64,000 nt of DNA from Paracoccus zhejiangensis (GTDB lineage Bacteria; Pseudomonadota; Alphaproteobacteria; Rhodobacterales; Rhodobacteraceae), in assembly GCF_002847445.1 (NCBI RefSeq), contig NZ_CP025430.1:558001-622000 (forward strand). The letters are read 5' to 3'. The translations under genes and the position numbers were made by a program. This document shows, in pieces, positions 18,786 to 38,881 of the stretch (position 1 is the stretch's first letter; every line of letters starts with the position of its first letter). The notes below the pieces were generated by a model that was given only the letters and a program-made list of their open reading frames with translations, was not told where the DNA came from and did not search any database.

Positions 18786-18902
18786 CGGGCAAACTCCAAT
18801 GCCCGACTGTCGGATGTGGTTAACGGGATGGCAATATGTCTGAATGGCTAGTGGGGTGGGGTCGGTCCTGCAGATCTCACTGAGGTTCGCGCGGCGACAT
18901 CG

Positions 18903-19064
18903 GCCCGGGAACCAGGGCGAAGCCCGCCCGGGCCAGCGCCGGCCCGTCCCGGCGGGCTGGCGCTTTGGTGCCGCTGGTCCCGAGTTCAGAAAGGCGAGGG
19001 ACTTGGCACCATAAAGCGCGTAGGCCGGCCGTTGCAGCGCCACCCCACGGGCCGGCGCTGGCCC
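18903..19064 (+). repeat. Interspersed palindromic repeat, copy A (162 bp)
   Basis: One of three related copies. Arms 18930-18946 and 19048-19064 are a perfect 17-bp inverted pair. Inside, TGGTGCC pairs with GGCACCA and GGCGCT with AGCGCC, and near the left end GGGC-GAA-GCCC forms a small hairpin. It lies between the alpha/beta hydrolase stop and the Excalibur gene start and fills most of a 312-base gap (18786-19097). The rest of the gap holds the Excalibur gene's upstream region and nothing else recognised. Confidence 0.85.
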
Positions 19065-19097
19065 TCTGATGCGCGTCAGGTCAGCGCCGCAAAAGCG

Positions 19098-20039
19098 TCA
19101 CGCCGCCCCGTAATGCCTGAGCAGCGCGTCATAGAACCGCTCCTGCACGTCGGGGCTTTCCATCATCGCCTCGTGCCGGCAGCGCGCCAGTTCCAGCAGC
19201 TCCGATCCCGGCCAGCGGGCGGCACGGTCGCGGATGGCGGCGCCCGAGACGATCTTCTCGCCGTCGCCAAGGGTGATCAGCACCGGGCATCCGGGCGAGT
19301 CGAGGCCCGCAAGCCGGGTGCATTCGTTCAGCGCCTTGGCCACCCAGTCGAAGCTGGCGCCGCCGATGGTCAGCTCGGGCCAGGCGGCCGCCTCGCAGAC
19401 GAGACGCGCCCAGGTCGGGGCGTCATGGGTCAGAAGGTTGGCGCTGAAGCTTTCGTCGAGCAGGTAGGTTCCGGCGGCACCGCTGCCCGGCGCGGCGCGG
19501 CCACCGTGACCAAGCCGACCGGCCAGGTAGGCCATGCCAAGCGCCACGCCATGCGGCATTTGCCGGAGGTTGATCCCCCACATCGGCGCCGAAAAGGCTG
19601 CGGTCTCGACCGGCAATTCGTTGTAAAGCGCCGCCAGCCCGATGCAGCCGCCCATGGAGTGGGCGAGCAGATGCCAGGGCCGGGGCAGGTCCAGTTCGGT
19701 CGCGGCAAGGACCATCTCCACCACGTCGCGCTGGTAGTCGGCGAAATCTCTGACATGGCCGGGGCGGGGATCGTTCTGCAGCCGACCCGACAGGCCCTGG
19801 CCGCGCCAGTCGATCGACAGGACCGAGAGGCCAGCGGCATTCAGCCGCGCGGCGACGCCGGTATATTTCTCGACATATTCGGTGCGGCCCGGGAACAGCA
19901 GCACGCTGCCCCGCGGCGTCCGCCGGGTGGTCGGCCAATGCGCCAGACGCAGTTGCACCCCGTCATCGGCGGTGACGAAAAACGCCTCTGCCGGGGGAAG
20001 GTGATCCCCCGGCAGGCTGTGAAAGGGGGCAGGTCTCAC
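19098..20039 (-). CDS. Alpha/beta hydrolase (lysophospholipase-like)
   Basis: Serine hydrolase of 313 residues. The nucleophile elbow is LLAHSMGGCIG near 125-135. The oxyanion region includes LFPGRTEYVEKY near 50, and the catalytic Asp and His are probably in ITLGDGEKIVSG near 255 and ARCRHEAMMES near 287. The overall pattern fits the monoglyceride lipase/lysophospholipase L2 (PldB) group. No signal peptide. It is 13 bases downstream of the SCP2 gene on the same strand, so a lipid-related unit is possible. Confidence 0.88.
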   Translation of the reverse strand: MRPAPFHSLPGDHLPPAEAFFVTADDGVQLRLAHWPTTRRTPRGSVLLFPGRTEYVEKYTGVAARLNAAGLSVLSIDWRGQGLSGRLQNDPRPGHVRDFADYQRDVVEMVLAATELDLPRPWHLLAHSMGGCIGLAALYNELPVETAAFSAPMWGINLRQMPHGVALGMAYLAGRLGHGGRAAPGSGAAGTYLLDESFSANLLTHDAPTWARLVCEAAAWPELTIGGASFDWVAKALNECTRLAGLDSPGCPVLITLGDGEKIVSGAAIRDRAARWPGSELLELARCRHEAMMESPDVQERFYDALLRHYGAA

Positions 20040-20052
20040 CGGGCGCTCCGGA

Positions 20053-20343
20053 TCAGGACAGGGCCACGCCCAGCTGCATCGCCAGCGGCATCGAACCCTC
20101 GATGCGCAGCTTGCCGGTCATGAAGGCCGAGGTCGGGTTCTCGGTGCCGTCAAGGATGCCCTCGAAGGTTTCGCGCGAAGCGAACAGGGTCACTTCCGCC
20201 TCTTCGTCGCCGGCGCGGGCGCCATTGCCATCGATCATGATCGCGCCTTCATCCTCGATCACGAATTTCGCGGTGGAGTCAAAGCTCCCGAGACGCTCGT
20301 TCAGTTTCTCGACGGCCTTGTTCACGACTTCGCTCATCTGCAT
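20053..20343 (-). CDS. SCP2 sterol-binding domain protein
   Basis: Stand-alone SCP2 domain of 96 residues, a small lipid-binding fold. Visible features are KFVIEDEGAIMIDGNG in the first half and the family's C-terminal FMTGKLRIEGSMPLAMQLG. It probably binds hydrophobic ligands such as acyl chains. An ATG two codons later (20337) is an equally possible start. It is divergent from the TPR protein gene with 76 bases between starts, and upstream of the alpha/beta hydrolase. Confidence 0.9.
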   Translation of the reverse strand: MQMSEVVNKAVEKLNERLGSFDSTAKFVIEDEGAIMIDGNGARAGDEEAEVTLFASRETFEGILDGTENPTSAFMTGKLRIEGSMPLAMQLGVALS

Positions 20344-20419
20344 TTCTCCGTTGCGCTATGACTGGTCCCCAACCCAAGGACTGTCTACACTGGGGGCAGA
20401 CAAGGCGGAAGGCGGGAAA

Positions 20420-20983
20420 ATGGTTCGGGTCGCAGCAGTGCTGCTTGCCGCAAGCGTCAACATTTTTGCCCTTGGCGCAAGTGCTGGCGTGGCGTCATCC
20501 CAGGGCACGGTCGACATGGATGCGTTGTTTCAGCAACTGTCCCAGCCCGAGGGCGAGGGCTGGCGCATTGCCGAAAGCGATATCCTGCGCGAATGGTCGA
20601 AATCCGGCTCGCCGGCGATGGACCTGCTGCTGAAGCGCGGCGAGGAGGCGCTGGACCAGGGCGACGCCGTCACCGCAATCGGCCACCTGACCGCGCTGAC
20701 CGATCACGCTCCCGATTTCGCCACCGGCTACCAGGCCCGCGCCGCCGCCTATGCGCTGAAGGGCGATTACGGCCCGGCCATCGCCGACCTGGCCCATGCG
20801 CTTGAACTGGAACCACGGCAATTCGCGGCGCTGACCCAGATGGGCGTGATGCTGGAGGAAATGGGCGACGACGAACGCGCCATGGCCGCCTATCGCGCCA
20901 CGCTGGAGATCCATCCGCATCAGCAGGAGGCCATCGACGGGCTGGCCCGTCTGGAAATGGCCAATCACGGCACCGATATCTGA
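20420..20983 (+). CDS. Exported TPR-repeat protein
   Basis: Protein of 187 residues with an N-terminal signal peptide (VRVAAVLLAASVNIFALGASAGVA) and about three tetratricopeptide repeats between 85 and 185, including ATGYQARAAAYALKGDYGPA and ALTQMGVMLEEMGDDERAM. It should be periplasmic and mediate protein contacts. ATG 20420 follows GGCGGGAAA and starts the signal peptide; the upstream frame is antisense to the SCP2 gene. It ends 4 bases before the helicase gene, so both are likely co-transcribed. Confidence 0.86.
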   Translation: MVRVAAVLLAASVNIFALGASAGVASSQGTVDMDALFQQLSQPEGEGWRIAESDILREWSKSGSPAMDLLLKRGEEALDQGDAVTAIGHLTALTDHAPDFATGYQARAAAYALKGDYGPAIADLAHALELEPRQFAALTQMGVMLEEMGDDERAMAAYRATLEIHPHQQEAIDGLARLEMANHGTDI

Positions 20984-20987
20984 TCCC

Positions 20988-23960
20988 ATGAAGTCGAATT
21001 CGCGCGTGACGGCCATGCTGGGGCCGACCAATACCGGCAAGACCCATTACGCCATCGACCGGATGCTGGCGCATCGCACCGGCGTCATCGGCCTGCCGCT
21101 GCGTCTGTTGGCGCGCGAGGTCTATGACCGGATCGTCAAGGCGCGCGGTCCCTCGGTCGTGGCGCTGGTCACCGGCGAGGAACGGATCGTGCCCGACCGG
21201 GTGCAATACTGGGTCGCCACCACCGAGGCCATGCCCGAGGTTGGCGCCGATTTCGTCGCCATCGACGAGATCCAGCTTTGCGCCGATCCCGAGCGGGGCC
21301 ATGTCTTCACCGACCGGATGCTGAACATGCGGGGGCTGCACGAGACCCTGCTTCTGGGCAGCGACACCATGCGTCCCGCCATCAACGCGCTGGTGAACAA
21401 TGTCCGCTTCGAGCGGCGCGAGCGGTTCTCGACCCTGACCTGGGCTGGCTCGAAGAAGCTCAGCCGGATGCCGGCGCGCTCGGCCATCGTCGGATTCAGC
21501 GTCGATGATGTCTATGCCATGGCCGAGTTGATCCGGCGGCAGCGTGGCGGGGCCGCCGTGGTCATGGGCGCGCTCAGCCCTCGCACGCGCAATGCACAGG
21601 TGGCGATGTACCAGGCGGGCGAGGTCGATTTCCTCGTCGCCACCGATGCCATCGGCATGGGCCTCAATCTCGACATCCACCATGTCGCCTTCAGTTCCAC
21701 GCAGAAATTCGACGGCCGCCGGGTGCGGCACCTCTTCCCGCACGAGATGGGCCAGATTGCCGGACGGGCCGGGCGGCACAGCGAACCGGGCACCTTCGGC
21801 GTCACCGGCGAGGCGCGGCCGCTGGACGAGGGGCTGATCGACGCGCTGGAGAACCACCGCTTCGCGCCGATCCAGCGGCTGATGTGGCGCAATGCCGCAG
21901 TCGAATACGGCACGCTCGAACGGCTGATCGCCAGTCTCGAGGTCTCGCCCGAGAACGAATGGCTGGTGCGCGGGCGCGAGGCCGATGACCTGCGGGCGCT
22001 GAAAACCCTGGGCGATCTGCCCGAGATCCGCGACCGGGTGACCGGGCCGCCGGATGTGCGGCTGCTCTGGGATGTCTGCCGGGTGCCTGATTTCAGGGGC
22101 ATTTCCCCGGCGGAACACACGACATTGCTGCAGCGCATCTTCGGTTTCCTGCAGGAAGGCGCGATCCCCTCGGACTGGCTGGCCGGCCAGATCGAGCGGC
22201 TGGATCGCCCGAAAGGGGATATCGACACGCTGTCGAAGCGCTTGGCATATATCCGCACATGGACCTATGTGGCGCAACGGCGTGGCTGGGTTCAGGATGA
22301 AAGCCATTGGCGCGGGGAAACGCGCGCTGTAGAAGACCGCCTGTCGGATGCGCTGCATGTCGCACTGACCGAACGATTTGTGGACCGGCGCACCTCGGTG
22401 CTGTTGCGCCGGCTCAAGCAGAAGGAGAGCCTCGTGGCCGAAGTGAATGACAAGGGCGAAGTGACGGTCGAAGGCGAGTTCGCCGGCCGGCTGGAGGGAT
22501 TCCGCTTCCGCCCCGACCAGACCGCGACGGCGGACGAGGCGAAGATGCTGAACCGCGCCAGCTACGAGGCGCTGAAGCCCGAATTCCACCTGCGCGCCGA
22601 CCGCTTCTACAACGCCCCGGATACCGAGCTCGACTTCACCGAGCAGGGTGGGCTGATGTGGGGCGCCTCGGCCGTGGGCAAGCTGGTCAAGGGCGCGGAC
22701 GCGCTGCATCCGGGCGTCGAGCCTTTCGTGGACGAGGAAGCCGGTCCCGAGATCGCCGAGAAGGTCCGCCGCCGGCTGCAGCATTTCATCGACCGCAAGG
22801 TCGCGACCCTGTTCGAGCCGCTGCTCGCGCTGCAGAAGGACGAGGCGCTGACCGGGTTGGCACGCGGTTTCGCCTTCCGGCTGGTCGAGTCGTTGGGGGT
22901 GATCCCGCGCGACGAGGTTGCGGGCGATGTGAAATCGCTGGATCAGGACGCGCGCGGCACCCTGCGCAAGCATGGCGTGCGCTTTGGCCAGTTCACCATC
23001 TTCCAGCCGGCCCTGTTGAAGCCTGCGCCGACGCGGCTGCGGCTGGTCCTGTGGTCGCTGAACGCGGGCCTTGACGAATTCCCCGAAAGCCCGCCACCGG
23101 GCCTGGTGACGATCCCGCATCTGGCCGAGGTGCCGGACGGCTATTACATTCTCTCGGGCTATCACCCGGCGGGCGACCGCGCGATCCGCATCGACATGCT
23201 GGAGCGGCTGGCCGATCTGGTGCGCGCGCAGGACACGCGCGGCGGCTTCGAGGCCAATCCCGACATGCTGTCGATCACCGGCATGACGCTGGAACAGTTC
23301 GCCGGCCTGATGCAGGGGCTGGGCTATGCCGCCGAGAAGGGCGAGCGGGCCAAGGCCAAGGCGGTCGAGGCCGCACCGGAAGCCGTGGCCGAGACGCCGG
23401 CGACCGATGCTCCGATGACCGAAGAGGAATCGGTGCTGGCCGCCGAGACCCGGGCGAAATGGGAAGCCGAGCAGGCGGCCAAGAAGGCCGCCGAGGCCGA
23501 GGCGGCTGCGGCAGCGGGCGAGGCGGTTGCCGAAGACGGCGAGGCCCCGGCCGAGACCGAGGCCGCCGAGCTCGAAACCTTCTATACCTTCCGTTGGGCG
23601 CCGAAGCCCCGCGCCCCGCGTCGTCCGCAGGGCGAGGGTCAGGGCCGTCGCGGCCCGCGCCGCGACGCTTCGCAGGGTCCGCGCGAGGGTCAGGGACAGC
23701 GCGAAGGTCAGCCGCAGGGCGATCGGCCCAAGCGCGAGGACCGCAAGGAAGCCCGCGGTGAAGGTCGCGGCGAGAACCGGGGCGAGGGCAAGCCCGGTCG
23801 CGGTCCTGGCAAGAAGGGTGACTTCAAGAAGGGCGATTTCAAGAAGGGTGGCAAACCCTCTGGCTCGCAAAGCCCCAAGACCTACCAGTCGCGCCCCGAG
23901 AAGAAGGCCGATCCCGATAGTCCCTTCGCGGTGCTGGCGGCGCTGAAGGGCAAGGTCTGA
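20988..23960 (+). CDS. Suv3-like superfamily 2 RNA helicase with RG-rich tail
   Basis: ATP-dependent helicase of 990 residues. Walker A is MLGPTNTGKTHYAID near 8-22, the Walker B variant is VAIDEIQLC near 89, and the second helicase core ends with EMGQIAGRAGRHSEPGTFG near 255-275. Linker and Suv3-type domains follow to about 760. From about 785 the protein becomes acidic/alanine-rich, then from about 880 a disordered basic region of Arg, Gly, Gln and Lys with repeats such as KKGDFKKGDFKKGG. Suv3 is the mitochondrial degradosome helicase; an RNA-processing role is inferred. The next gene encodes an RNA-binding S4 protein, 7 bases away. Confidence 0.9.
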   Translation: MKSNSRVTAMLGPTNTGKTHYAIDRMLAHRTGVIGLPLRLLAREVYDRIVKARGPSVVALVTGEERIVPDRVQYWVATTEAMPEVGADFVAIDEIQLCADPERGHVFTDRMLNMRGLHETLLLGSDTMRPAINALVNNVRFERRERFSTLTWAGSKKLSRMPARSAIVGFSVDDVYAMAELIRRQRGGAAVVMGALSPRTRNAQVAMYQAGEVDFLVATDAIGMGLNLDIHHVAFSSTQKFDGRRVRHLFPHEMGQIAGRAGRHSEPGTFGVTGEARPLDEGLIDALENHRFAPIQRLMWRNAAVEYGTLERLIASLEVSPENEWLVRGREADDLRALKTLGDLPEIRDRVTGPPDVRLLWDVCRVPDFRGISPAEHTTLLQRIFGFLQEGAIPSDWLAGQIERLDRPKGDIDTLSKRLAYIRTWTYVAQRRGWVQDESHWRGETRAVEDRLSDALHVALTERFVDRRTSVLLRRLKQKESLVAEVNDKGEVTVEGEFAGRLEGFRFRPDQTATADEAKMLNRASYEALKPEFHLRADRFYNAPDTELDFTEQGGLMWGASAVGKLVKGADALHPGVEPFVDEEAGPEIAEKVRRRLQHFIDRKVATLFEPLLALQKDEALTGLARGFAFRLVESLGVIPRDEVAGDVKSLDQDARGTLRKHGVRFGQFTIFQPALLKPAPTRLRLVLWSLNAGLDEFPESPPPGLVTIPHLAEVPDGYYILSGYHPAGDRAIRIDMLERLADLVRAQDTRGGFEANPDMLSITGMTLEQFAGLMQGLGYAAEKGERAKAKAVEAAPEAVAETPATDAPMTEEESVLAAETRAKWEAEQAAKKAAEAEAAAAAGEAVAEDGEAPAETEAAELETFYTFRWAPKPRAPRRPQGEGQGRRGPRRDASQGPREGQGQREGQPQGDRPKREDRKEARGEGRGENRGEGKPGRGPGKKGDFKKGDFKKGGKPSGSQSPKTYQSRPEKKADPDSPFAVLAALKGKV

Positions 23961-23967
23961 CCCGCGC

Positions 23968-24267
23968 GTGAGCGAGGCGCCCGACAGCATCCGGCTGGAC
24001 AAGTGGCTGGTCCATGTGCGCCTGTTCAAGACGCGCGGACTGGCCGCCGAGAGGATCGAGGGCGGCGGCGTGCGGGTGAACGGCCAGCCAAGCCGCAAGC
24101 CGGGCCGCAGCATCCGGCCCGGTGACGAGGTGACCGTCTCGATGCAGGGCCGTGTGCGTGCATTGCGGATGATCGCGCCGGGTGTCCGGCGCGGCCCGGC
24201 CAGCGAGGCGCAGACGCTCTACGAGGATCTGACCGAACCCGGCCCGACGGACGCGACCGAAGACTGA
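23968..24267 (+). CDS. S4-domain RNA-binding protein (Hsp15-like)
   Basis: Protein of 99 residues with an S4 RNA-binding domain at about 5-60: IRLDKWLVHVRLFKTRGLA and VRVNGQPSRKPGRSIRPGD. Hsp15 rescues stalled 50S subunits carrying nascent chains in E. coli. Here the C-terminus is shorter and ends acidic. GTG 23968 is the start, 7 bases after the helicase stop, implying co-expression of two RNA-binding factors. Confidence 0.88.
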   Translation: MSEAPDSIRLDKWLVHVRLFKTRGLAAERIEGGGVRVNGQPSRKPGRSIRPGDEVTVSMQGRVRALRMIAPGVRRGPASEAQTLYEDLTEPGPTDATED

Positions 24268-24335
24268 GCCCGCGACCGGGATGGTTTTTGCCGTCCCGAC
24301 CCGCCGGCAGGACGGGCGTTCCGGCTTTGCCACCT

Positions 24336-24355
24336 GTCCGGAATGCCGGACTTTT
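24336..24355 (+). terminator. Candidate terminator after the S4 gene
   Basis: GTCCGG (24336-24341) and CCGGAC (24346-24351) form a 6-bp stem with an AATG loop, directly followed by TTTT. It ends the helicase/S4 transcript before the fdxA promoter. Confidence 0.55.
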
Positions 24356-24369
24356 CAACCCGCGCGGCC

Positions 24370-24398
24370 TTGATTGATCGCGCCGCCGGGCGTAACTA
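24370..24398 (+). promoter_or_regulatory. Candidate fdxA promoter
   Basis: TTGATT (24370-24375) and TAACTA (24393-24398) are spaced by 17 bases, with the -10 ending 26 bases before the fdxA start. It is a reasonable sigma-70 type match; no operator was recognised. Confidence 0.45.
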
Positions 24399-24424
24399 GC
24401 GCCTCGGACTGAACGGAGCATCCC

Positions 24425-24763
24425 ATGACCTATGTCGTCACCGATAATTGCATCATGTGCAAATACACGGATTGCGTCGAGGTCTGCCCGGTCGACTGCT
24501 TCTATGAGGGCGAGAACACCCTGGTGATCCACCCCGACGAATGCATCGATTGCGGCGTCTGCGAGCCCGAATGCCCGGCCGATGCGATCCGCCCGGATAC
24601 CGAACCGGACATGGAAAAATGGGTCGAGTTCAACCGCAAATACTCGGAACAATGGCCGGTCATCACCCGCAAGAAAGACCCGCTGCCGACCGCCGAGGAA
24701 ATGGACGGGCAGGCCGACAAGCTGGACAAGTATTTCTCGGAAGCGCCGGGCGAGGGCGACTGA
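24425..24763 (+). CDS. fdxA: Ferredoxin FdxA (7Fe, 3Fe-4S plus 4Fe-4S)
   Basis: Small electron carrier of 112 residues. The first cluster region is [19 protein letters not shown], the second [16 protein letters not shown], giving the cysteine spacing of Azotobacter FdI-type seven-iron ferredoxins. The C-terminal extension ([16 protein letters not shown] and after) is typical of this class. The ribosome site is AACGGAGC. It lies upstream of carD in an arrangement common in Alphaproteobacteria. Confidence 0.96.
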
Positions 24764-24864
24764 TTCGTCCGGTCGCGCAGCGGGCAGGCCCAGTTGTCAG
24801 GCGCTAACCCCATGGCAAACAAGTCTTAATTGAACATGCGTTTCCCGGGCGCGAATTGACGCAA

Positions 24865-24888
24865 GCTTCTTTTTTTGAAGCGTTTTTT
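24865..24888 (+). terminator. Candidate terminator after fdxA
   Basis: GCTTC (24865-24869) pairs with GAAGC (24877-24881) around a T-only loop, then G and TTTTTT (24883-24888). The stem is short and A/T-rich in an otherwise GC-rich region. It is immediately upstream of the TATAAT box at 24895. Confidence 0.45.
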
Positions 24889-24894
24889 ATGCTA

Positions 24895-24900
24895 TATAAT
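24895..24900 (+). promoter_or_regulatory. TATAAT -10 box before the carD leader
   Basis: A consensus TATAAT within GCTATATAAT, with only a weak -35 candidate (TTTTTG at 24872-24877, 17-base spacing). Transcription would start near 24906, giving a leader of about 180 bases ahead of carD. Confidence 0.5.
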
Positions 24901-24905
24901 GGTTA

Positions 24906-25084
24906 CATTCGCGTTTACCGGGGTGAGGCCCCGGGATACGTGCGCCCGTAAGCTGCTGATCCCAATGACCCCTGCCGGTCCTGGGACAAGATGAAAATGA
25001 CCAGACGCGACCCCGGGCGGGCATCCCGCCTCGGGCCGCTTGTGCCCTGCGCTGACGCATGGACACTATCGATGAGGAAGCCTG
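24906..25084 (+). ncRNA. Structured carD leader or separate small RNA (candidate)
   Basis: The 321-base gap between fdxA and carD (24764-25084) has no gene but three predicted hairpins: CCGGGG/CCCCGG (24918-24923 with 24929-24934); TCCCA/TGGGA enclosing GACC/GGTC (24960-24986); and CCCG/CGGG enclosing GCGGG/CCCGC (25012-25035). A consensus -10 box precedes them. It could be a regulatory 5' leader of carD or an independent RNA. No known RNA family was recognised. Confidence 0.35.
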
Positions 25085-25594
25085 ATGTCGAAAACCAAGA
25101 AAAACGAATTCCGTCCCGACGATTTCGTTGTCTACCCTGCACATGGCGTAGGCAAGATCGTTTCGATCGAAGAGCAGGAAGTCGCCGGTCTTAAGCTGGA
25201 GATGTTCGTCATCTCCTTCGAGAAGGACAAGATGACCCTGCGTGTGCCCACCGCCCGCGCCGCCGAGATCGGCATGCGCAGCCTGGCCTCGCCCGATCTG
25301 GTCGACCAGGCGCTGGCGACGCTGAAGGGCAAGGCCCGCGTCAAGCGCGCCATGTGGTCGCGCCGCGCGCAGGAATACGAGCAGAAGATCAATTCGGGCG
25401 ATCTGATGTCGATCGCCGAGGTGGTCCGCGACCTGCACCGCAATGACGACCAGCGCGAGCAGTCCTATTCCGAGCGTCAGCTCTACGAAGCCGCGCTGGA
25501 CCGCCTGACCCGCGAGGTTGCCGCCGTGGCCGGCCTCGACGAGGGCTCGGCCCAGAAGCGCGTGGACGAGGTCCTGACCAGCCGCGCCGCGTAA
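25085..25594 (+). CDS. carD: CarD/CdnL-type RNA polymerase-binding regulator
   Basis: Global transcription factor of 169 residues. The N-terminal RNA-polymerase-interacting Tudor-like domain spans about 10-65 (FRPDDFVVYPAHGVGKIVSI, then LEMFVISFEKDKMTLRVP). The helical DNA-contacting domain follows, with RRAQEYEQKINSGDLMSIAE near 97-116. CarD stabilises open promoter complexes, and in Rhodobacter it compensates for promoters lacking a good -10 element. The start follows a GAGGAAG site. A strong terminator follows. Confidence 0.94.
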   Translation: MSKTKKNEFRPDDFVVYPAHGVGKIVSIEEQEVAGLKLEMFVISFEKDKMTLRVPTARAAEIGMRSLASPDLVDQALATLKGKARVKRAMWSRRAQEYEQKINSGDLMSIAEVVRDLHRNDDQREQSYSERQLYEAALDRLTREVAAVAGLDEGSAQKRVDEVLTSRAA

Positions 25595-25616
25595 GAATTT
25601 GCGTCACCACATCGGA

Positions 25617-25645
25617 AGGGCGTCCCGCAAGGGGCGCCCTTTTTC
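25617..25645 (+). terminator. Rho-independent terminator of carD
   Basis: GGGCG (25619-25623) pairs with CGCCC (25636-25640), and CCC with GGG inside around a GCAA tetraloop, followed by TTTTT (25641-25645). It sits 22 bases after the stop and is the best classical terminator of the window. Confidence 0.85.
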
Positions 25646-25804
25646 TTGGGCGGGCCGGACTGCTGCTATCCGCGCGGGGTTGCTGCCATATGCGTAGACA
25701 CCCCGGCCTTTCGTCGCATCCCCGCCCGCCGCGCCCCGCGTGGACATTGCCGCCCCGGCCACCTATAAGGCCGGCAAATTTCCCATCCCTTTATGAGGCG
25801 CACC

Positions 25805-27591: not shown

Positions 27592-27723
27592 GGCGCGGCC
27601 GTTCCGGCGGCTGAAAATCCGCCGGGTAACAATCTTATACTTTAGGCCAAGCGTCGCGATATTTTCTTGCGTGACGGTTTTCATGCTGCTATGCAGCATC
27701 AGAACCGGAGCAAGGGGTTTGGG

Positions 27724-28167: not shown

Positions 28168-28205
28168 AGACGGGGTGCGGCGCGCGCCCCATGGGGGGCG
28201 CTGCC

Positions 28206-29138: not shown

Positions 29139-29578
29139 TGCGTCCGCGTTTCTGGGAATTGCCGCTGGCGAAGCTCGATCCCGAGGAATGGGAGGCGCTG
29201 TGCGACGGCTGCGGCAAATGCTGCCTGAACAAGCTGGAATTCGAGGACCCGCCCGAACTGGTCTTTACTCGCGTCTCCTGCCGTTTGCTCGACGGCCATG
29301 CCTGCCAATGCACCTCCTATGCCAACCGCCACGACTACGTGCCCGATTGCGTGGTGCTGACGCCGAAGAAGCTGAAAGAGGTGGCCTATTGGTTGCCGGC
29401 GACCTGCGCCTATCGGCTTCGCCACGAGGGCAAGCCGCTGGAGAATTGGCATTACCTGATCTCGGGCGACCGCGAGACCATCCATCGCGCCGGCATCAGC
29501 ATGCGCGACCGGACCATCAGCGAGGTCGAGGTGGATGAGGATGATTGGGAAGATTACATGATCGAGGACCTGTCGTGA
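29138..29578 (+). CDS. YcgN/UPF0260-type cysteine cluster protein
   Basis: Protein of 146 residues with many cysteines: CDGCGKCCLNKLEFED near 23-38, SCRLLDGHACQCTSY near 46-60 and YVPDCVVLTP near 67. The spacing is like the CxxCxxCC family (zinc- or iron-sulfur-binding), and the length fits UPF0260. Its biochemical role is not known. The start overlaps ribF by one base and the stop overlaps the threonine aldolase start by 4 bases, so the three genes form an operon. Confidence 0.9.
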   Translation: MRPRFWELPLAKLDPEEWEALCDGCGKCCLNKLEFEDPPELVFTRVSCRLLDGHACQCTSYANRHDYVPDCVVLTPKKLKEVAYWLPATCAYRLRHEGKPLENWHYLISGDRETIHRAGISMRDRTISEVEVDEDDWEDYMIEDLS

Positions 29579-30612
29579 ATTTCGCCTCGGACAATGCCTG
29601 GTGCGCCCATCCGGCGGTAATGGCCGCGCTGACTGACGCCAACCACGGCGCGATGATGGGCTATGGCGCCGATGCGGTGACGGCGGCGGCCGAGGCCGCG
29701 CTGCGCGAGGTGCTGGAGGCGCCCGAGGCCGTCATCCGCTTCGTCGCCACCGGCACTGCGGCCAATGCGCTGGTCTGTGCGCAACTGGCACCGGGTTTCG
29801 GCCGCATCTATTGCCACGAGGACGCACATATCGAGACCAGCGAATGCGCCGCGCCCGAATTCTTTACCGGCGGCGCCAAGCTGGTGACGCTGCCCGGCGC
29901 GGGCGGCAAGATCGCCCCCGAGACGCTGACCGAGGCGATCCGGCGCGGGGCCGCCGGCGGCTTGAACGAGGGCCGCAACGCCATGGTCTCGATCACCAAT
30001 GCGACCGAATGGGGCACGCTTTACAGCGTCGCCGAAGTGACGGCGCTGGCCGAGATCGCCCATGCCGGCGGGTTGCCCTTGCACATGGACGGCGCGCGCT
30101 TTGCCAATGCCGTCGCGGGTCTGGGGGTGACGGCGGCGGACCTGACCTGGCGCGCGGGCGTCGATGCTCTGTGTTTCGGCGGCACCAAGAACGGCGCGAT
30201 GGGGGCGGAGGCGATGGTCTTCTTCGATCCCGCCCAGGCCGAGAATTTTGACTATCGCCGCAAGCAATCAGGCCATGTCTTTTCCAAGAACCGCTATCTG
30301 GCGGCGCAGATGCTGGCGCTGGCGACCGACGGGCTGTGGCTGGAACTGGGCCGGCTGGCCAATGCCAAGGCCGCGCGGCTGGCCGAGGGGATTCTCGCGG
30401 CAGGCGGCGGGCTGATCCTGCCGGTGCAGTCGAACGCGGTCTTCGCCACCCTGCCGACGGCTGCGCATCAGCGGGCAAGGGCGGCCGGCGTGCGCTATCA
30501 CCTCTGGCCCGACAAGAGCGCCGAGGGGCTGGACCCGGTGCCGCTGCGGCTGGTCACGGCCTGGGACACGCCGGATGAGGAGATCGAGGGGTTTTTGCGG
30601 CTGATCGGCTGA
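29575..30612 (+). CDS. ltaE: Low-specificity L-threonine aldolase
   Basis: PLP enzyme of 345 residues that cleaves threonine to glycine and acetaldehyde. The Schiff-base lysine is in CFGGTKNGAMGAEAMVF near 195-200; LHMDGARFANA near 165 holds the conserved Asp, and FVATGTAANAL near 60 is the cofactor phosphate site. GTG 29575 gives the family's N-terminus (NFASDNAWCAHPAV) and overlaps the upstream stop by 4 bases. Repeat copy B begins 3 bases after its stop. Confidence 0.92.
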   Translation: MNFASDNAWCAHPAVMAALTDANHGAMMGYGADAVTAAAEAALREVLEAPEAVIRFVATGTAANALVCAQLAPGFGRIYCHEDAHIETSECAAPEFFTGGAKLVTLPGAGGKIAPETLTEAIRRGAAGGLNEGRNAMVSITNATEWGTLYSVAEVTALAEIAHAGGLPLHMDGARFANAVAGLGVTAADLTWRAGVDALCFGGTKNGAMGAEAMVFFDPAQAENFDYRRKQSGHVFSKNRYLAAQMLALATDGLWLELGRLANAKAARLAEGILAAGGGLILPVQSNAVFATLPTAAHQRARAAGVRYHLWPDKSAEGLDPVPLRLVTAWDTPDEEIEGFLRLIG

Positions 30613-30615
30613 CCT

Positions 30616-30777
30616 CGCCCGGAACAAGGGCGAAGCCCGCCGGGCGAGCGCCTGCCCGTTCCGGCGGGCTGGCGCTTTGGTGCCGCTGATCCTGCGTTCA
30701 GGGAAGCGAGGGACTTGGCACCATAAAGCGCATCGCTCAGCCCATGGCAGCGCCACCCCACGGGCAGGCTCTCGCCC
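30616..30777 (+). repeat. Interspersed palindromic repeat, copy B (162 bp)
   Basis: Same length as copy A and closest to it. Arms 30642-30658 and 30761-30777 pair at 16 of 17 positions. The arms differ from copy A at matching places on both sides, so pairing is kept. GGGC-GAA-GCCC, TGGTGCC/GGCACCA and TGGCGCT/AGCGCCA are also present. It fills the gap between two convergent genes (threonine aldolase and cinA). Confidence 0.85.
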
Positions 30778-30781
30778 TGTG

Positions 30782-31252
30782 TCAGCCCTTCAACGCCTCG
30801 AGCAGCATTCTCAGCGCATGGTCAACCGTTGCTGCGCGCACCTGCGCCCGGCCAATCGCCCCGAATTCCACCGTCTCGACCCGCAGCCCCTGCGCCCCGG
30901 CCAGCCCGAAGCAGACCCGACCCTCGGGCTTGTGCTCGGACCCGCCTGGACCGGCGATGCCGGTGACGGCGACGGTGAATTGCGCCTGCGAATGCTCCAG
31001 CGCGCCCATGGCCATCTCGGCGGCGATCTCTTCGCTGACGGCGCCGAAATCACGCAGCGTCTCCGGCTTGATCCCCAGCATCTGCATCTTGGCGGCATTG
31101 GAATAGGTGACGAAGCCGCGATCCACCACGTCCGAGGATCCGGCGATCTCGGTCAGCGCACCGATGATCAGCCCGCCGGTGCAGCTTTCCGCCGTGGCGA
31201 TCATCGCGCCTTGCGCGCGGGCGGCGTCCAGAACCTCGGCCGCGAGGCTCAT
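30782..31252 (-). CDS. CinA family protein (nicotinamide-nucleotide amidase domain)
   Basis: Protein of 156 residues corresponding to the C-terminal CinA/PncC domain alone, which deamidates NMN in pyridine-nucleotide recycling. Family motifs: MIATAESCTGGLI near 17 (catalytic Ser), ADVVDRG-like SDVVDRGFVTYSNAAK near 39 and VAVTGIAGPGGS near 95. Short CinA proteins of this type are common. Its start overlaps the pgpA stop by 4 bases, putting it last in the purL-ispDF-pgpA-cinA operon. Confidence 0.93.
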   Translation of the reverse strand: MSLAAEVLDAARAQGAMIATAESCTGGLIIGALTEIAGSSDVVDRGFVTYSNAAKMQMLGIKPETLRDFGAVSEEIAAEMAMGALEHSQAQFTVAVTGIAGPGGSEHKPEGRVCFGLAGAQGLRVETVEFGAIGRAQVRAATVDHALRMLLEALKG

Positions 31253-31743: not shown

Positions 31744-31745
31744 GC

Positions 31746-32890
31746 TCACGCTCCGATCAGGGTGCAGGTGGCGATGGCGGCGATGCCCTCGCGCCGGCCG
31801 GTGAAGCCCAGTTGCTCCGAGGTGGTGGCCTTGACGCTGACACGCCCGGCCTCGACACCCATGATCGCCGCCAGCCGGTCCTGCATCGCAAGGGCATGGG
31901 GGCCGATCTTCGGCGCCTCGCAGACCAGCGTCACATCGGCATTGCCAAGGCGGAAGCCGCGCGCGCGGAACAACTCTGCGGCATGCGCCAGGAAGATGGC
32001 GCTGTCGGCACCCTTCCATTGCGGGTCAGAGGGCGGGAAGTGGCGGCCAATGTCCCCCTCGGCCAGCGCGCCGTAGATCGCGTCGGTCAGCGCGTGCATG
32101 CCCACATCGGCGTCGGAATGGCCGACCAGCCCGTGGTCATGCGGGATCTGCACGCCGCAGAGCCAGACATGATCGCCGGGGCCAAGCGCGTGAACGTCAT
32201 AGCCATTGCCCATGCGGATATCCATGCCGCCTCCCAGAATGCGCTCGGCCCGGGCGAAATCCGGGGCAAAGGTGATCTTCAGATTGTCCTCGTCGCCCGG
32301 GGTGATGGCGACCGGGATGCCGGATTTGCGCGCCAGTTCTACATCGTCGGCGGCATCCTGCGGGTGGTCGCGATGGGCCTTGGAGATCTGGGCGAGCGAG
32401 AAACCCTGCGGCGTCTGCGCGCGAAACAGGCCATCGCGCGAGGCGGTGCCGGTGACGCTGCCACCCTCGCCGCGCCAGAGCGCATCGGTGACGGGCAAGG
32501 CCGGGGCGGCGGCCTCGGCCCCCGATTGCAGCGCGGCGATCACGCCCTCGATCACCGCATCGCTGACCAGCGGCCTTGCGCCGTCATGGATCAGCACATG
32601 GGTGATGTCGCTGCCCTGCAGGCTGTCGAGTGCAGCACGGACGCTGGCGGCGCGGGTCTCGCCGCCGGTCAGGATCGTCACTTGCCCGGCGAACAGGTCC
32701 TGCGCGCGGGCCATGTCCTCGGGATGGACGGTCAGGATCACCCGCTCGAAGCCGGCAAAGCGGTCAAGCGTGTGGGCCAGCACCGGCCGGCCCTGCAAGG
32801 CGCGCCATTGCTTGGGTTCACCGCCCCCCGCACGGGTGCCGCGACCGGCGGCGGTGATGATGGCGGCATAGCCTTTCGGGGCTGTCACGC

Positions 32891-32894
<4 letters not shown>
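31746..32894 (-). CDS. ispDF: Bifunctional IspDF of the MEP isoprenoid pathway
   Basis: Fused enzyme of 382 residues. Residues 1-220 are IspD (CTP:MEP cytidylyltransferase), with the nucleotide loop [19 protein letters not shown] near 13-31 and [12 protein letters not shown] near 103. Residues 225-382 are IspF (MEcPP synthase), with [17 protein letters not shown] near 228 and [18 protein letters not shown] near 255 (metal ligands Asp and His). The fusion is common in Alphaproteobacteria. It overlaps the purL stop by 4 bases. Confidence 0.96.
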
Positions 32895-35071
<2,177 letters not shown>

Positions 35072-35211
35072 GTCATGCGCCCTTTGCGGTCATCGGGGAA
35101 TTCGCCGCCTTTTAGGCGCTGCGGCGGGCAAGGGAAAGGGGCGATGGTTTTCCCCGGCCCCGCGCGGGGCTAGGCTGGCCCAAAGCGGTGCGATCTCGGG
35201 GAGGGAAGGGT

Positions 35212-35874
35212 TTGCGGCGAGCCAAACAATCCGACCGCGCGCTGGAGGTGCTGGCGGGCTATCGCCATGGCCCCGATGCGGCGCTGGCGGCGATCCGGGC
35301 GGGCATCGCGCAGGCGGACGCCGCGCGGGCGATCATTCTGGTCGAGGGGATCAGCGACCAGATCGCCATCGAGACGCTGGCCCGGCGATGTGGGCGCGAT
35401 CTGGCCGCCGAGGGGGTGCTGGTCTTTCCGACCGGCGGCTCAGGCTCGCTGCGGCGCTATCTTGCCGAGTTTGCCGCTGCCGAGCCGCGTCCCATCCTCG
35501 CCGGGCTCTTCGACCGCGATGCGCTTCCGCTTCTCCGCCGCGCGCTGGCGGCGGCGGGCCTGGAGGCGTCCGAGAGTGTCACCGGCCTTGCAGAGCTTGG
35601 CTTTCACATCTCGACCCGCGATCTCGAGGACGAGCTGATCCGTGCCATCGGCCCGGCGCGGCTGGCGGCGCTGATCGCGGCCGAGGGCGAGGGTGGGGCG
35701 CTGGCGACGCTGGGGAAACCGGCCGAGTGGCGGGACCGACCGGCCGGGGACCTGCTGCACCGCTTCCTGCGCAGCAAGGCCAGCCGCAGCCTGCGCTATG
35801 CCCGGCTGATCGTCGAGGCGCTGGACGAGGACTGCATTCCGGCACCGCTGCGTGCCGTGCTGGCCTCGGTCTGA
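35212..35874 (+). CDS. Solitary TOPRIM-domain protein (OLD-nuclease-like)
   Basis: Protein of about 220 residues. TOPRIM motifs of the OLD-type class: IILVEGISDQIAIETL with the catalytic Glu near 37, LAGLFDRDALP (D-x-D) near 92, and ISTRDLEDELI near 126. The ATPase domain normally fused to this TOPRIM in OLD nucleases is absent. TTG 35212 is preferred because GGGAGGGAAGGG stands directly before it; GTG 35188 would add 8 residues. Function may be a nuclease or nucleotidyl-transfer-like activity; unknown. It is divergent from purL and convergent with the next gene (no spacer). Confidence 0.68.
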   Translation: MRRAKQSDRALEVLAGYRHGPDAALAAIRAGIAQADAARAIILVEGISDQIAIETLARRCGRDLAAEGVLVFPTGGSGSLRRYLAEFAAAEPRPILAGLFDRDALPLLRRALAAAGLEASESVTGLAELGFHISTRDLEDELIRAIGPARLAALIAAEGEGGALATLGKPAEWRDRPAGDLLHRFLRSKASRSLRYARLIVEALDEDCIPAPLRAVLASV

Positions 35875-36846
35875 CTAGGCCCCTTCCGCCAGATGGTTCT
35901 TCAACCAGCGATGGGCGAAGCCGATCTTCTGCCGCATCGGCGTGGTCAGCACGAAGGGATAGAGATCGGCATTGTCCAGCGCGCGGTTGATGTCGTTCAC
36001 CGCGATGGCGACGCGGGCGGCGATGTCCAGAAGCGCCTCGGTGTCATCGGCGGCATAGGCGTCAAAGCCCTCGGGCAGGTCGGGCATCGAAAGGCCGGTG
36101 CTGACGAAACTGTCGGTCATGTCCACGAGATGCAGCAGATGGGCCACGGTCTCGGCCCAGTCCTCGTGCGGATGGGCACCTGCATAGGGGGTGATGAAAA
36201 CATTGGTCCGGTCCGGCGGGGCGGCATAGTAGGTCTGCAGCGCCAGGCCGTAATCGGCGCGCTCGTCCCCGAACAGCGCGCGGAACCCCGGCAGGAAATT
36301 CGGCGAGACCGCCAGCCGGTCAAAGAAGAAATGCGCCAGCTCGTGGCGGAAATGCCCGACCATGCTGCGATATTGCTCGCCCAGTTCCTGCCGGCGCTGC
36401 AGCCGGATCAGCTCGTCGGCCTCGGTCACGTTGATGGTGATCTCGCCGCCCATATGGCCCATGGTGATCTGCTGGACGCGGCCGCCCATATCCTCGGACA
36501 GCATCAGGAAACGCGGGCGCGGGCCGGGATCGGATGCGGTGAACCAGTTCCACTTGGCGACATTGGCCAGCACCCATCGCTTGGCGCGCTCGGCCCGGTT
36601 CAGCAGCTGGATATTGTTGCCGGCGCTGAGGTCGGGCACCACCTGCGACAGCGCGCAGGAGGCGCAGAAGGCGCCCAGATCGCCCGCGATCCAGTTGCAG
36701 GCGATCGGGCCGCGATTGGGGCAGGGCGGGGCGGCGTTCAGCATCAGGGCGCGGGCAGGGTCGAAATAGAGATCGTGACCACAGGGACAGCTGAGGCTGT
36801 GGAAATAGGCGCGGCGGCCGCAGGCGGGACAGGCAAAGCGTTGCAT
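35875..36846 (-). CDS. Zinc-ribbon putative metallopeptidase (Peptidase_Mx type)
   Basis: Protein of 323 residues. An N-terminal zinc ribbon (FACPACGRRAYFHSLSCPCG, residues 4-23) and further Cys pairs (CPNRG, CASC) precede a catalytic domain. The HExxH motif is GHFRHELAHFFFDRL near 165-180; possible third ligands are Glu residues in GDERADYG and HEDWAETVAHLL. It resembles the putative zinc-binding metallopeptidase family PF15887 by layout. No signal peptide, so cytoplasmic. ATG 36846 is chosen for the ribbon at its N-terminus. Substrate unknown. Confidence 0.8.
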   Translation of the reverse strand: MQRFACPACGRRAYFHSLSCPCGHDLYFDPARALMLNAAPPCPNRGPIACNWIAGDLGAFCASCALSQVVPDLSAGNNIQLLNRAERAKRWVLANVAKWNWFTASDPGPRPRFLMLSEDMGGRVQQITMGHMGGEITINVTEADELIRLQRRQELGEQYRSMVGHFRHELAHFFFDRLAVSPNFLPGFRALFGDERADYGLALQTYYAAPPDRTNVFITPYAGAHPHEDWAETVAHLLHLVDMTDSFVSTGLSMPDLPEGFDAYAADDTEALLDIAARVAIAVNDINRALDNADLYPFVLTTPMRQKIGFAHRWLKNHLAEGA

Positions 36847-36945
36847 GGGTTGGCAAGGTTCCTTTCGCGGGACAATGCCTTGCGGGCCGGGCGGGTTCCG
36901 GGTCATGATCACGCGAGCGACACCCGTCGCCACCCCCTGCATCGC

Positions 36946-36974
36946 TTGACTTGCCCCCCCGAATCCGCCATATA
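36946..36974 (+). promoter_or_regulatory. Candidate rplU-rpmA promoter
   Basis: TTGACT (36946-36951) and CATATA (36969-36974) spaced by 17 bases, about 150 bases upstream of rplU. A good sigma-70 match for a ribosomal operon; the long leader that follows has no recognised regulator motif. Confidence 0.55.
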
Positions 36975-37124
36975 GCCGCGGACCGGCCAGGCAAACGCTT
37001 TTGGCCGGTGCGTTATTTTCAACACCACCCAATCGACAGGGTGCGCTGTCCGACGGCGGGTCAGGCCCGGCAACACCTGCGCAGGCAGGGGCCACAGGAC
37101 GCGGCAAATGAAGGAAGACAAGGC

Positions 37125-37640
37125 ATGTTCGCGGTTCTGAAAACCGGTGGCAAGCAGTACAAGGTGCAGGCGGGTGACGTCCTGCGCGTCGAGAAACTGG
37201 CCGCCAATGCAGGCGATACCGTCCAGTTCAACGAGATTCTGATGGTCGGCTCGACCCTCGGCGCGCCGCTGGTGGCGGGTGCCGGCGTGCAGGCCGAAGT
37301 GATCGAGCAGATCAAGGCTGACAAGGTCATCACCTATGTCAAGCGCCGCCGCAAGCACAGCTCGCAGCGCACCCGTGGCCACCGCCAGCAACTGACGCTG
37401 CTGCGCGTGACCGAGGTGCTGGAATCGGGCGCCGACAAGTCGGGCGTGAAGGAAGCCATCGGCTTCCGCACCGCCGGCGCGTCCTTCGTCGCGGCCCCGG
37501 CTGCCGACAAGAAGCCCGCTGCCAAGGCCAAGAAACCCGCCAAGGCGAAGGTCGAGGCTGCTGACGCCGCCGCGCCCGCCAAAGCGGCGAAGAAGCCGGC
37601 CAAGGCCAAGAAAGCCGCCGAGACTTCGGACGAAGCCTGA
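37125..37640 (+). CDS. rplU: Ribosomal protein bL21 with Ala/Lys-rich tail
   Basis: Large-subunit protein, 171 residues; the core L21 domain is about 1-105 ([19 protein letters not shown] at the start, [16 protein letters not shown] near 73-88). From about 120 it has a low-complexity Ala-Lys-Pro tail with repeats such as [14 protein letters not shown]. Extended L21 tails are known in Alphaproteobacteria. ATG 37125 starts the conserved domain. rpmA follows 81 bases later. Confidence 0.96.
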
Positions 37641-37721
37641 TCGCTGCTGGGGCCCCGATGGCCCCGCTGAACGGAACAAGTCGGCCGGTTGATCCGGCCA
37701 GAGTGCAAGAGGACTAAAGTC

Positions 37722-37994
37722 ATGGCACACAAGAAAGCAGGCGGTTCGTCCCGCAACGGCCGCGACTCGGCCGGTCGTCGTCTCGGCGTCAAGCTGTATG
37801 GCGGTCAGGAAGCCATCGCCGGCAACATCATCGTGCGTCAGCGCGGTACCAAGATGTGGGCCGGCGCCAATGTCGGCATGGGCAAGGATCACACCCTGTT
37901 CGCCCTGACCGATGGCGCGGTGACCTTCACCAAGGGCCTGAAGGGCCGCACCTTCGTCTCGATTATGCCCGCCAATATCGAGGCAGCCGAATAA
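37722..37994 (+). CDS. rpmA: Ribosomal protein bL27
   Basis: Large-subunit protein of 90 residues near the peptidyl-transferase centre. Standard N-terminus [16 protein letters not shown] and the conserved [20 protein letters not shown]. No N-terminal pre-sequence is seen. RBS AGAGGACT lies 8 bases upstream. Its terminator lies at 38021-38049. Confidence 0.98.
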
Positions 37995-38020
37995 CGGCCG
38001 ATTGAGATACGTACAGTATC

Positions 38021-38049
38021 GGGGGATCGGCTCAGCCGGTCCCCCTTTT
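38021..38049 (+). terminator. Terminator of rplU-rpmA
   Basis: GGGGGATCGGC (38021-38031) pairs with GCCGGTCCCCC (38035-38045), 11 pairs including one G-T, TCA loop, then TTTT. Strong hairpin 26 bases after the rpmA stop. Confidence 0.85.
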
Positions 38050-38094
38050 CATTTTCGCCGCCGTGTTCTGGCGGCACCCGGGAGGAACATTCAC

Positions 38095-38640
38095 ATGGTT
38101 GATCTGGCCCCCGCCACGTCGATCCAGCCGACAATCGAGACGCCGCGCTTCCTGCTGCGTCCGCTGCGCCCGTCCGATGCCGGGCTTCTGGCCCATTACA
38201 CCGCCGACAAGCGCGTGGCCGAGGGCACCCGCGCCATTCCCCATCCGCTGCCGCCCGGCGCCTCGGAAGGCTTCATCAAGCGCGCGCTGGCGCCCGAGCG
38301 CAGCGAGGATGTCTGGGCCATCGACGGCAGCGCCAACCGCCTGGCCGAACTGCTGGGCGTGGTCTCGCTGACCCGGCTCGAGGATCAGCAGTCGGAACTG
38401 GGCTTCTGGATCGGGGCCGGCTTCTGGAACACCGGCTTTGCCACCGAGGCGGTCGAGGCATTGGTCGCGGCCAATCCCCATGGTGCGCGCACCCTCTTCG
38501 CCGAGGCGTTCCAGGACAATCCGGGTTCGGCCCGCGTCCTGACCAATTGCGGCTTTGCCTACCTGGGCGATGCCGAAAGCTGGTCGGTGGCGCGCCAGGC
38601 CCGGGTGCCGACCTGGACCTACCTGCGCCGGATGGACTGA
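38095..38640 (+). CDS. GNAT acetyltransferase (RimJ/RimL-like)
   Basis: Protein of 181 residues of the ribosomal-protein-serine/alanine acetyltransferase type. Start ETPRFLLRPLRPSDAGLLA near 15-33, middle SELGFWIGAGFWNTGFATEAV near 100 (cofactor loop), end ARVLTNCGFAYLGDAES. A GNAT gene commonly follows rpmA in Alphaproteobacteria, before obgE, which is not found here. Start follows GGAGGAAC. Repeat copy C begins 25 bases after the stop. Confidence 0.88.
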   Translation: MVDLAPATSIQPTIETPRFLLRPLRPSDAGLLAHYTADKRVAEGTRAIPHPLPPGASEGFIKRALAPERSEDVWAIDGSANRLAELLGVVSLTRLEDQQSELGFWIGAGFWNTGFATEAVEALVAANPHGARTLFAEAFQDNPGSARVLTNCGFAYLGDAESWSVARQARVPTWTYLRRMD

Positions 38641-38665
38641 GTGGCTGGTAGCTGAACAGCGACCT

Positions 38666-38828
38666 GGCCCGGAATGAAGGTGCGCAGCACCGCCGGGCCA
38701 GCGGCCTGCCGTCCCGGCGGCTGGCCGCTCTGGTGACCACCCGCGCCGTGCAGTTGTTCGATATGCTGGAGCCATAAAGCTCTGTCGTTCGGCCGCCGCA
38801 GCGGCCATCCACGGCAGGCCGCCGGCCC
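38666..38828 (+). repeat. Interspersed palindromic repeat, copy C (163 bp)
   Basis: The most diverged copy. Arms 38695-38712 and 38811-38828 pair at 17 of 18 positions with sequence different from copies A and B. The small left hairpin is here GGTGC-GCA-GCACC (GGGC-GAA-GCCC in A and B), and the inner stem is TGGCCGCT/AGCGGCCA. The GCCATAAAGC segment is kept. It occupies over half of the 307-base gap 38641-38947; the rest holds the terminator at 38882-38916 and the LLM gene upstream region. Confidence 0.8.
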
Positions 38829-38881
38829 TCGGTCATGCTTCTTCCCACCCGAAAACCGTAGCCCAGATCTGCACGATCTGC

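What the first reader, a model, noticed from the sequence alone, without database searches (positions are those of the whole stretch)
18903..38828. A three-copy 162-163 bp interspersed repeat with long inverted arms
Copies lie at 18903-19064, 30616-30777 and 38666-38828, all in the same orientation and nearly equal in length (162, 162, 163). Each has 17-18 base terminal arms that pair almost perfectly, and a conserved core with the sequence CCATAAAGC. Each fills a gap between genes. No transposase is near. It could be a non-autonomous mobile element, a REP-like element or a family of structured RNAs. I do not recognise it as a named family.
Basis: partly seen in the sequence, partly recalled or inferred. 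Interest (0 to 1): 0.78.

Follow-up and report, generated by a model that had tools for sequence, protein, structure and literature searches.

The report
Family-wide hairpin repeat beside gene ends
A roughly 180-base hairpin repeat, found at about 48 places on this bacterium's chromosome and, in the samples searched, only in its own bacterial family, sits just behind genes and looks like a small passenger element whose means of spreading is not yet known.

Summary
The three copies belong to a ~180-bp family with 48 distinct places on the own chromosome. In its family, 177 of 394 sampled genomes matched; in two class-wide samples only family members did. Rfam has no match.

The structure covaries: 31 of 40 pairs change on both sides, 17.8 in shuffles (alignment fitted to the model). 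One 5-base box can pair with either of two others, so two foldings compete.

Copies sit 3' of genes: 13 of 23 between convergent genes (84 of 520 gene pairs), 21 of 23 within 35 nt of a stop codon. They tend to follow replication (37 of 48). No target-site duplication stood out.

Against a ~94%-identical relative, 21 of 48 own copies could be matched to a site: 10 hold the same copy, 10 another (3 inverted), 1 unclear. In nine kept copies, 16 of 27 changed pairs break.

Best reading: a REP/MITE-like non-autonomous repeat whose structure matters for spreading. No mobilising enzyme was found.

The parts
18893..19074 (+). Element copy 1, extent of model R1; core 18903-19064. Lies behind the stop of the minus-strand gene 19098-20039 and upstream of a small predicted minus-strand gene
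   Evidence: (183.8 bits)
18903..18933 (+). 5' hairpin of copy 1 (GCCCGGG...CCCGGGC); its 3' half overlaps the long arm and competes with it
   Evidence: complementarity read from the sequence; the minimum-energy fold shows only its inner stem
18930..18947 (+). 5' long arm of copy 1; pairs 18/18 with 19047-19064
19047..19064 (+). 3' long arm of copy 1
19009..19017 (+). CCATAAAGC core of copy 1
30607..30787 (+). Element copy 2, extent of model R1; core 30616-30777. Fills the gap between two convergent genes (stops at 30612 and 30782)
   Evidence: (173.3 bits)
30616..30646 (+). 5' hairpin of copy 2; its 3' half overlaps the long arm and competes with it
   Evidence: complementarity read from the sequence; not the minimum-energy fold in full
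30642..30659 (+). 5' long arm of copy 2; pairs 17/18 with 30760-30777
30760..30777 (+). 3' long arm of copy 2
30721..30729 (+). CCATAAAGC core of copy 2
38657..38838 (+). Element copy 3, another subfamily (GCGGCC arms), extent of model R1; core 38666-38828. Behind the stop at 38640 of a GNAT gene, between tandem plus-strand genes
   Evidence: (125.2 bits)
38666..38699 (+). 5' hairpin of copy 3
   Evidence: present in the minimum-energy fold
38695..38712 (+). 5' long arm of copy 3; pairs 17/18 with 38811-38828
38811..38828 (+). 3' long arm of copy 3
38772..38780 (+). CCATAAAGC core of copy 3
29575..30612 (+). Host gene left of copy 2, Beta_elim_lyase (PF01212); start from a home-made codon-model caller
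30782..31252 (-). Host gene right of copy 2, CinA (PF02464)

Best explanation
It is a non-autonomous, multi-hairpin interspersed repeat (REP/MITE-like) of ~180 bp, found only in Rhodobacteraceae in these samples. Shown: a covarying structure with two competing foldings, position beside gene ends, partial agreement of orientation with replication, lineage-specific copy families, and replacement, inversion, a chimera and internal deletions at sites shared with a close relative. Inferred: the folded single strand (DNA, at or near the replication fork) is what spreads, helped by a trans-acting factor not identified here. Insertions survive where they harm least, just 3' of genes. Resident copies are then overwritten by other family members through ectopic conversion or nearby insertion plus deletion. 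So the structure is selected for spreading, and only weakly or not at all for a job at each site.
For: 48 distinct own-genome places; 54 model matches, one an echo on the other strand, in close relative G511; 177 of 394 family genomes; all 67 scored candidates matched in each of two genomes. Structure: 91.9% of cells paired, 31 of 40 pairs with changes on both sides, covariation score 0.298 against 0.097 shuffled and 0.023-0.056 slid. Nearest copies are lineage-mates: 74 of 75 within the own/G511 pair, 17 of 19 within the G014/G007 pair, 29 of 29 in G078 (few copies per other genus were in that pool). Position: 13 of 23 convergent against 84 of 520 gene pairs, 21 of 23 within 35 nt of a stop, 1 divergent. 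Orientation with replication: 37 of 48, convergent-only 22 of 28, G014 15 of 20; 33 of 47 by local skew. At 21 matched sites: 10 same copy, 10 different, 1 unclear. In nine kept copies 16 changed pairs are broken, 3 compensated, 8 G-U type.
Against: No transposition event was seen. No near-identical copies at two places were seen: the highest identity between different stretches in the 40 of 489 rows shown is 87.5% over 368 bp, and the best own-genome match to copy 2 is 87%; an all-against-all comparison of own copies was not run. Only one clean empty site was found in the close relative (own 275530), and its flanking intergenic bases differ too. No mobilising protein was found: Y1_Tnp presence does not track the element (20 of 38 against 157 of 356, p 0.39) and reverse transcriptase only weakly (61 of 116 against 116 of 278, p 0.059). 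Paired positions change less than unpaired ones in kept copies (27/680 against 51/771, p 0.027), so some selection at the site is possible. The 21 matched sites were mostly reached through G511 loci chosen because they hold an element, so they do not measure loss. The origin and terminus for the own-genome orientation test were read from sampled skew after the orientations were known.
Confidence: 0.65

Rival explanations
1. A working 3'-end module: the transcribed element folds and ends or protects transcripts, on both strands between convergent genes, and is kept at each site for that.
For: Position mostly 3-35 nt behind stop codons; strong covariation; many sites stay occupied by some copy in either orientation (18 of 23 in the collinear stretch), as expected if any copy will do; paired positions change somewhat less.
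Against: Only 13 of 84 convergent pairs in the 520-kb stretch carry one, and the 71 element-free convergent gaps have a median of 15 bp. In one search, 32 of 36 other same-genus genomes had no match. Of 27 changed pairs in nine kept copies 16 break. No intrinsic terminator by the simple scan around copy 2, the only copy scanned.
Confidence: 0.2
2. A derivative of one known transposase family (IS200/IS605 or RAYT, or a DDE MITE) moved in trans.
For: Hairpins, lack of a clear duplication and orientation with replication resemble single-strand transposition (lagging-strand targeting by IS200/IS605: PMC6006769, passages). G007 and G014 carry interrupted IS200-like genes.
Against: 157 of 177 element-bearing genomes have no Y1_Tnp match, the own genome among them. 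No target-site duplication stood out. No gene flanked by both element ends was noticed, but no dedicated search for one was made.
Confidence: 0.08
3. An old repeat that no longer moves. Its turnover is only gene conversion, slippage and tandem duplication, plus exchange with related strains.
For: No near-identical copies seen; a chimeric copy (L055), a swapped 5' hairpin (L042) and internal deletions at orthologous sites; local dimers and a three-copy row.
Against: Lineage-specific families with tens of copies and absence from most sister species searched imply spread at some time.
Confidence: 0.12

Closest known systems
REP elements, GTAG and CGTC super-families (PMC3733652; abstract and passages seen)
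   Same: Palindromic; mostly between convergent or unidirectional genes, next to (<20 bp) the 3' ends in the convergent cases shown there; CGTC families predominate in alphaproteobacteria and apparently lack a dedicated transposase
   Different: REPs are 20-40 bp with an unpaired tetranucleotide tag; this is ~180 bp with several hairpins and a long-range stem
CIR (Caulobacter intergenic repeats), from the review PMC2229807 (passages); original paper not held
   Same: Alphaproteobacterial, intergenic, two long inverted-repeat arms; a GANTC site at a loop
   Different: ~110 bp; GANTC highly conserved there, here in 24 of 76, 7 of 30 and 15 of 70 rows of three sets; sequences could not be compared
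ERIC/IRU and YPAL (PMC2229807, passages)
   Same: Intergenic, 127-168 bp, highly base-paired; YPAL has internal inverted repeats, is not A+T-rich and targets areas of dyad symmetry
   Different: Both are listed with target-site duplications (3 to 26 bp in YPAL) and are enterobacterial; no fixed-length duplication stood out here
REP with TnpA-REP/RAYT, REPINs (PMC8266576 passages; PMC3116915 seen in a listing only)
   Same: Non-autonomous hairpin repeats thought to need a trans-acting enzyme
   Different: Enzyme known and REP tagged, most often GTAG; here Y1_Tnp presence does not correlate

Membership tests
REP (GTAG or CGTC) | 20-40 bp palindrome with an unpaired GTAG or CGTC tag | tested here: not met
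   Unit is ~180 nt with several helices; the end consensus shows no such tag
REP (GTAG or CGTC) | Between convergent or unidirectional genes, close to 3' ends | tested here: met
   22 of 23, 21 of them within 35 nt of a stop
REP/RAYT | Co-resident Y1 (RAYT) transposase | tested here: not met
   Y1_Tnp in 20 of 177 element-bearing genomes against 18 of 217 without; no match in G000
MITE (DDE type) | Target-site duplication | tested here: inconclusive
   104 copies, lengths 2-9 at fixed offsets; the strongest of several thousand combinations was a 3-mer in 8 copies (1.49 expected), read as chance; duplications of varying length or place are not excluded
MITE (DDE type) | Terminal inverted repeats shared with an autonomous IS | tested here: inconclusive
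   Weak terminal symmetry GCAGA...TCTGnnGC; no autonomous partner noticed, not searched for
CIR | GANTC site in a loop | tested here: inconclusive
   In the first 45 nt of 24 of 76 family rows (7.9 expected), all or nearly all at position 15
CIR | Sequence homology to CIR1-4 | not testable with these tools
   Original paper not held
Rfam RNA families | Match at gathering score | tested here: not met
   0 matches in the window and in 20 loci; weak sub-threshold matches only for one copy each
Intrinsic terminator | GC hairpin followed by a T run | tested here: not met
   0 found at 30300-31100; only this copy was scanned

The most novel reading that the evidence does not exclude
The three-box, four-arm pairing is a strand switch that the element uses to spread without a transposase of its own. 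The 5' and 3' boxes are direct repeats that compete for one partner, so the folded single strand can exchange with a resident copy at a fixed site in either orientation. This would be a cassette-exchange repeat running on host replication and repair.
Probability: 0.12. Interest if true: 0.85.

Novelty: new member of a known kind. Interest (0 to 1): 0.6.

Why it matters
It appears to be a repeat family not described in the sources searched, spread across much of Rhodobacteraceae (Roseobacter relatives, Paracoccus) and reaching tens of copies per genome. It shows structure-level covariation without a known enzyme, and copies that are swapped or flipped at sites that stay put. That makes the open question of how transposase-less palindromic repeats spread and persist testable in cultured marine and soil bacteria. 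It also matters for annotation: it occupies 3' gene ends and could be mistaken for sRNAs or terminators.

Tried and rejected
Y1_Tnp (IS200/IS605, RAYT) as mobiliser: rejected as a general factor, no association over 394 genomes; in the Paracoccus sample the matches in G007 and G014 look like interrupted IS200-like genes. Reverse transcriptase: weak, p 0.059. Target-site duplications: none stood out. Rfam: none. Phages: no match. Plasmids: five records, Salipiger and Pacificitalea. The first alignment A2 had minus-strand copies in the wrong orientation and was replaced by A3 and A4; one row of the 20 (L019) was left out of A4. The tandem-repeat finder gave nothing on the three-copy row in L341. 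The first box-matching script misplaced many 3' boxes and was replaced. Terminator scan: none at copy 2.

Counts and rows dropped: 11 of 119 hits (duplicates, antisense echoes, one partial) were removed before 108 were tabulated; gene calls outside the own genome are noisy. In some searches one weak hit overlapping another (1072065-1072147) was left out of 49. In one search L094 was left unclassified; 27 of 48 own copies had no matched G511 locus. One search used nine of the ten same-copy pairs (L093, a deletion form, left out). In one search, six of 80 rows were dropped (short, without the anchor, or identical). In one search G498 had not been tested with R1 before. In one search four genomes under the family cut-off were kept in the 116. 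A check for overlap between named Pseudoroseicyclus records and the fetched G078 stretches found none, so G078's identity rests on contig lengths.
Full report
WHAT IS THERE. The three reported copies are real, at the stated places and lengths, on one strand. The last 18 nt of each pair with nt 28-45, 27-44 or 30-47 of the same copy (18, 17 and 17 of 18); the first 31-34 nt are self-complementary. So the arms are not both terminal as described. Conservation reaches roughly 8-10 nt further out on each side.

HOW MANY. Blastn with copy 2 gave 30 matches in the own genome at E <= 0.01 (40 of 144 candidates scored), 19 of them at E 4e-19 or better; copy 3 was not among them. A covariance model from 19 own copies, copy 3 included (R1), gave 49 matches, 48 distinct places, all on contig C1; 30 of the 49 were not in the model. 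The nearest relative found among 121 same-genus genomes, G511, has 54 matches, one an echo on the other strand. A 300-base stretch of G511 is identical to a record titled uncultured Paracoccus sp., so I call the genus Paracoccus. Of 36 other same-genus genomes, four had matches (13, 20, 4 and 2); of 24 from other families, none. In the family sample 177 of 394 genomes matched at E <= 1e-4 with only 6 candidates scored per genome. With a broader model (R2) in 40 chosen genomes, 23 matched, and in two all 67 scored candidates matched; 4 of 17 R1-negative genomes outside the genus became positive, none of three inside it. So 177 is likely a floor. In class-wide samples, with 11 candidates scored per genome, the only matches were the own genome and one other family member: 2 of 240 with R1, 2 of 230 with R2. 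An exact pattern found 58 stretches in the species-level genome collection, all with titles I recognise, by recall, as Rhodobacterales. Five plasmid records of Salipiger and Pacificitalea matched, no phage.

STRUCTURE. On 77 distinct rows, most from other genera, 91.9% of cells pair (79.3% shuffled), 31 of 40 pairs have changes on both sides (17.8 shuffled), and the covariation score is 0.298 (shuffled 0.097, slid 0.023-0.056). The alignment was fitted to this structure, which favours it, and the inner helices pair in only 72-81% of cells. Besides this long-range fold, a 5-base box before the long arm has its complement near the 3' end in 56 of 74 rows (12.2% in rows with a different box) and in the 5' hairpin region in 61 of 74 (23.2%); both in 47. 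The 5' arm hexamer has its exact complement in the inner arm in 69 of 74 rows (6.8% elsewhere) and in the 3' arm in 41 of 74 (6.9%). Two foldings therefore compete, and both covary. Whether RNA or single-stranded DNA folds is not known.

POSITION. In 520 kb of own chromosome, 521 genes were called with a home-made codon model. Thirteen of 23 elements lie between convergent genes, against 84 of 520 gene pairs (p 1.2e-5; 1.1e-4 if weighted by non-coding bases); nine lie between tandem genes, all nearer the 3' end of the upstream gene; one is divergent; 21 of 23 are within 35 nt of a stop, measured from the model match trimmed by 9 nt. For all 48 own copies: 28 convergent, 13 and 5 tandem, 2 divergent; for 60 copies elsewhere, with poorer gene calls, 26 convergent, 13 and 16 tandem, 3 divergent, 2 unresolved. 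This resembles published REP placement (PMC3733652, passages).

ORIENTATION. With replication boundaries read from sampled GC skew, 37 of 48 own copies point with replication (22 of 28 convergent ones) and 15 of 20 in G014 (p 0.041). Other boundaries give 34-36 of 48, and local skew alone 33 of 47. The bias is moderate, and the own origin is not independently fixed.

TURNOVER. G511 is collinear with 458 kb of the own chromosome, block identities 89-96%. Of 23 own elements there, 18 have an element at the same place in G511, 3 of them inverted; of the other five, by eye, one site is empty, two hold remnants (one inverted) and two hold unrelated DNA. Of 20 G511 elements there, 17 have an own element, two do not (one of these own sites may hold a remnant) and one could not be projected. 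Genome-wide, 21 of 48 own copies could be matched to a G511 locus, mostly loci chosen for holding an element: 10 hold the same copy (89-98% identity), 10 a different one (3 inverted; one, L055, a chimera) and one is unclear. Three short ~85-bp own forms face a full-length form in G511. At copy 2, 16 of the 18 loci resolved lack the element, and in two of these (L162, L171) the two stops abut; G511 has a different subfamily member there. Nearest neighbours of copies are mostly lineage-mates. In nine kept pairs, paired positions changed in 27 of 680 and unpaired in 51 of 771 (p 0.027); 16 changed pairs are broken, 3 compensated, 8 of G-U type. Roseovarius nubinhibens has three copies in a row.

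MECHANISM. No fixed-length target-site duplication stood out in 104 copies. Y1_Tnp is not associated (20 of 38 against 157 of 356) and reverse transcriptase weakly (61 of 116 against 116 of 278, p 0.059). My reading is that the folded strand spreads with help of an unknown factor, that insertions persist where harmless, and that copies then convert each other. These last steps are inference.

KNOWN OR NOT. Rfam: none. Literature searches in the held open-access library combining Rhodobacteraceae, Rhodobacterales, Paracoccus, Roseobacter, Rhodobacter or alphaproteobacteria with REP, MITE, intergenic-repeat or structured-RNA terms, and passages of PMC3281130, PMC12306157, PMC2864571 and PMC5107571, showed no description; subscription papers and supplements were not seen. 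PMC8632094 (outline, one section and passages) describes Rhodobacterales RNA motifs; those seen have other gene contexts, and its supplement was not readable. CIR is the nearest alphaproteobacterial analogue and could not be compared in sequence.

Noticed in passing
G000 contigs C2-C5: All 49 own-genome matches listed lie on C1 (3.99 of 4.64 Mb), none on the other four contigs, although other species carry the element on plasmids.
   Followed up: no
L390 and relatives (alignment A10): The spacer between element dimers in G078 carries a separate palindrome, GGTGGGTTGGAAACCCACCCTAC, GTAG-tagged on the other strand, like a classical REP.
   Followed up: no
L293, L294: Interrupted IS200-like Y1 transposase genes in G007 and G014, two of the five element-bearing same-genus genomes.
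   Followed up: partly
G000:C1:426824-427300: A reverse-transcriptase match in an own-genome stretch that falls in a gap of the G511 alignment.
   Followed up: no
alignment A8, position 15 of the element: A GANTC methylation site (mostly GGAATCAAG) in the 5' hairpin loop in 24 of 76 family rows, recalling CIR repeats.
   Followed up: partly
G422:C1:1246591-1247525: An element lies about 400 nt downstream of a reverse-transcriptase match on the same strand; probably chance.
   Followed up: no
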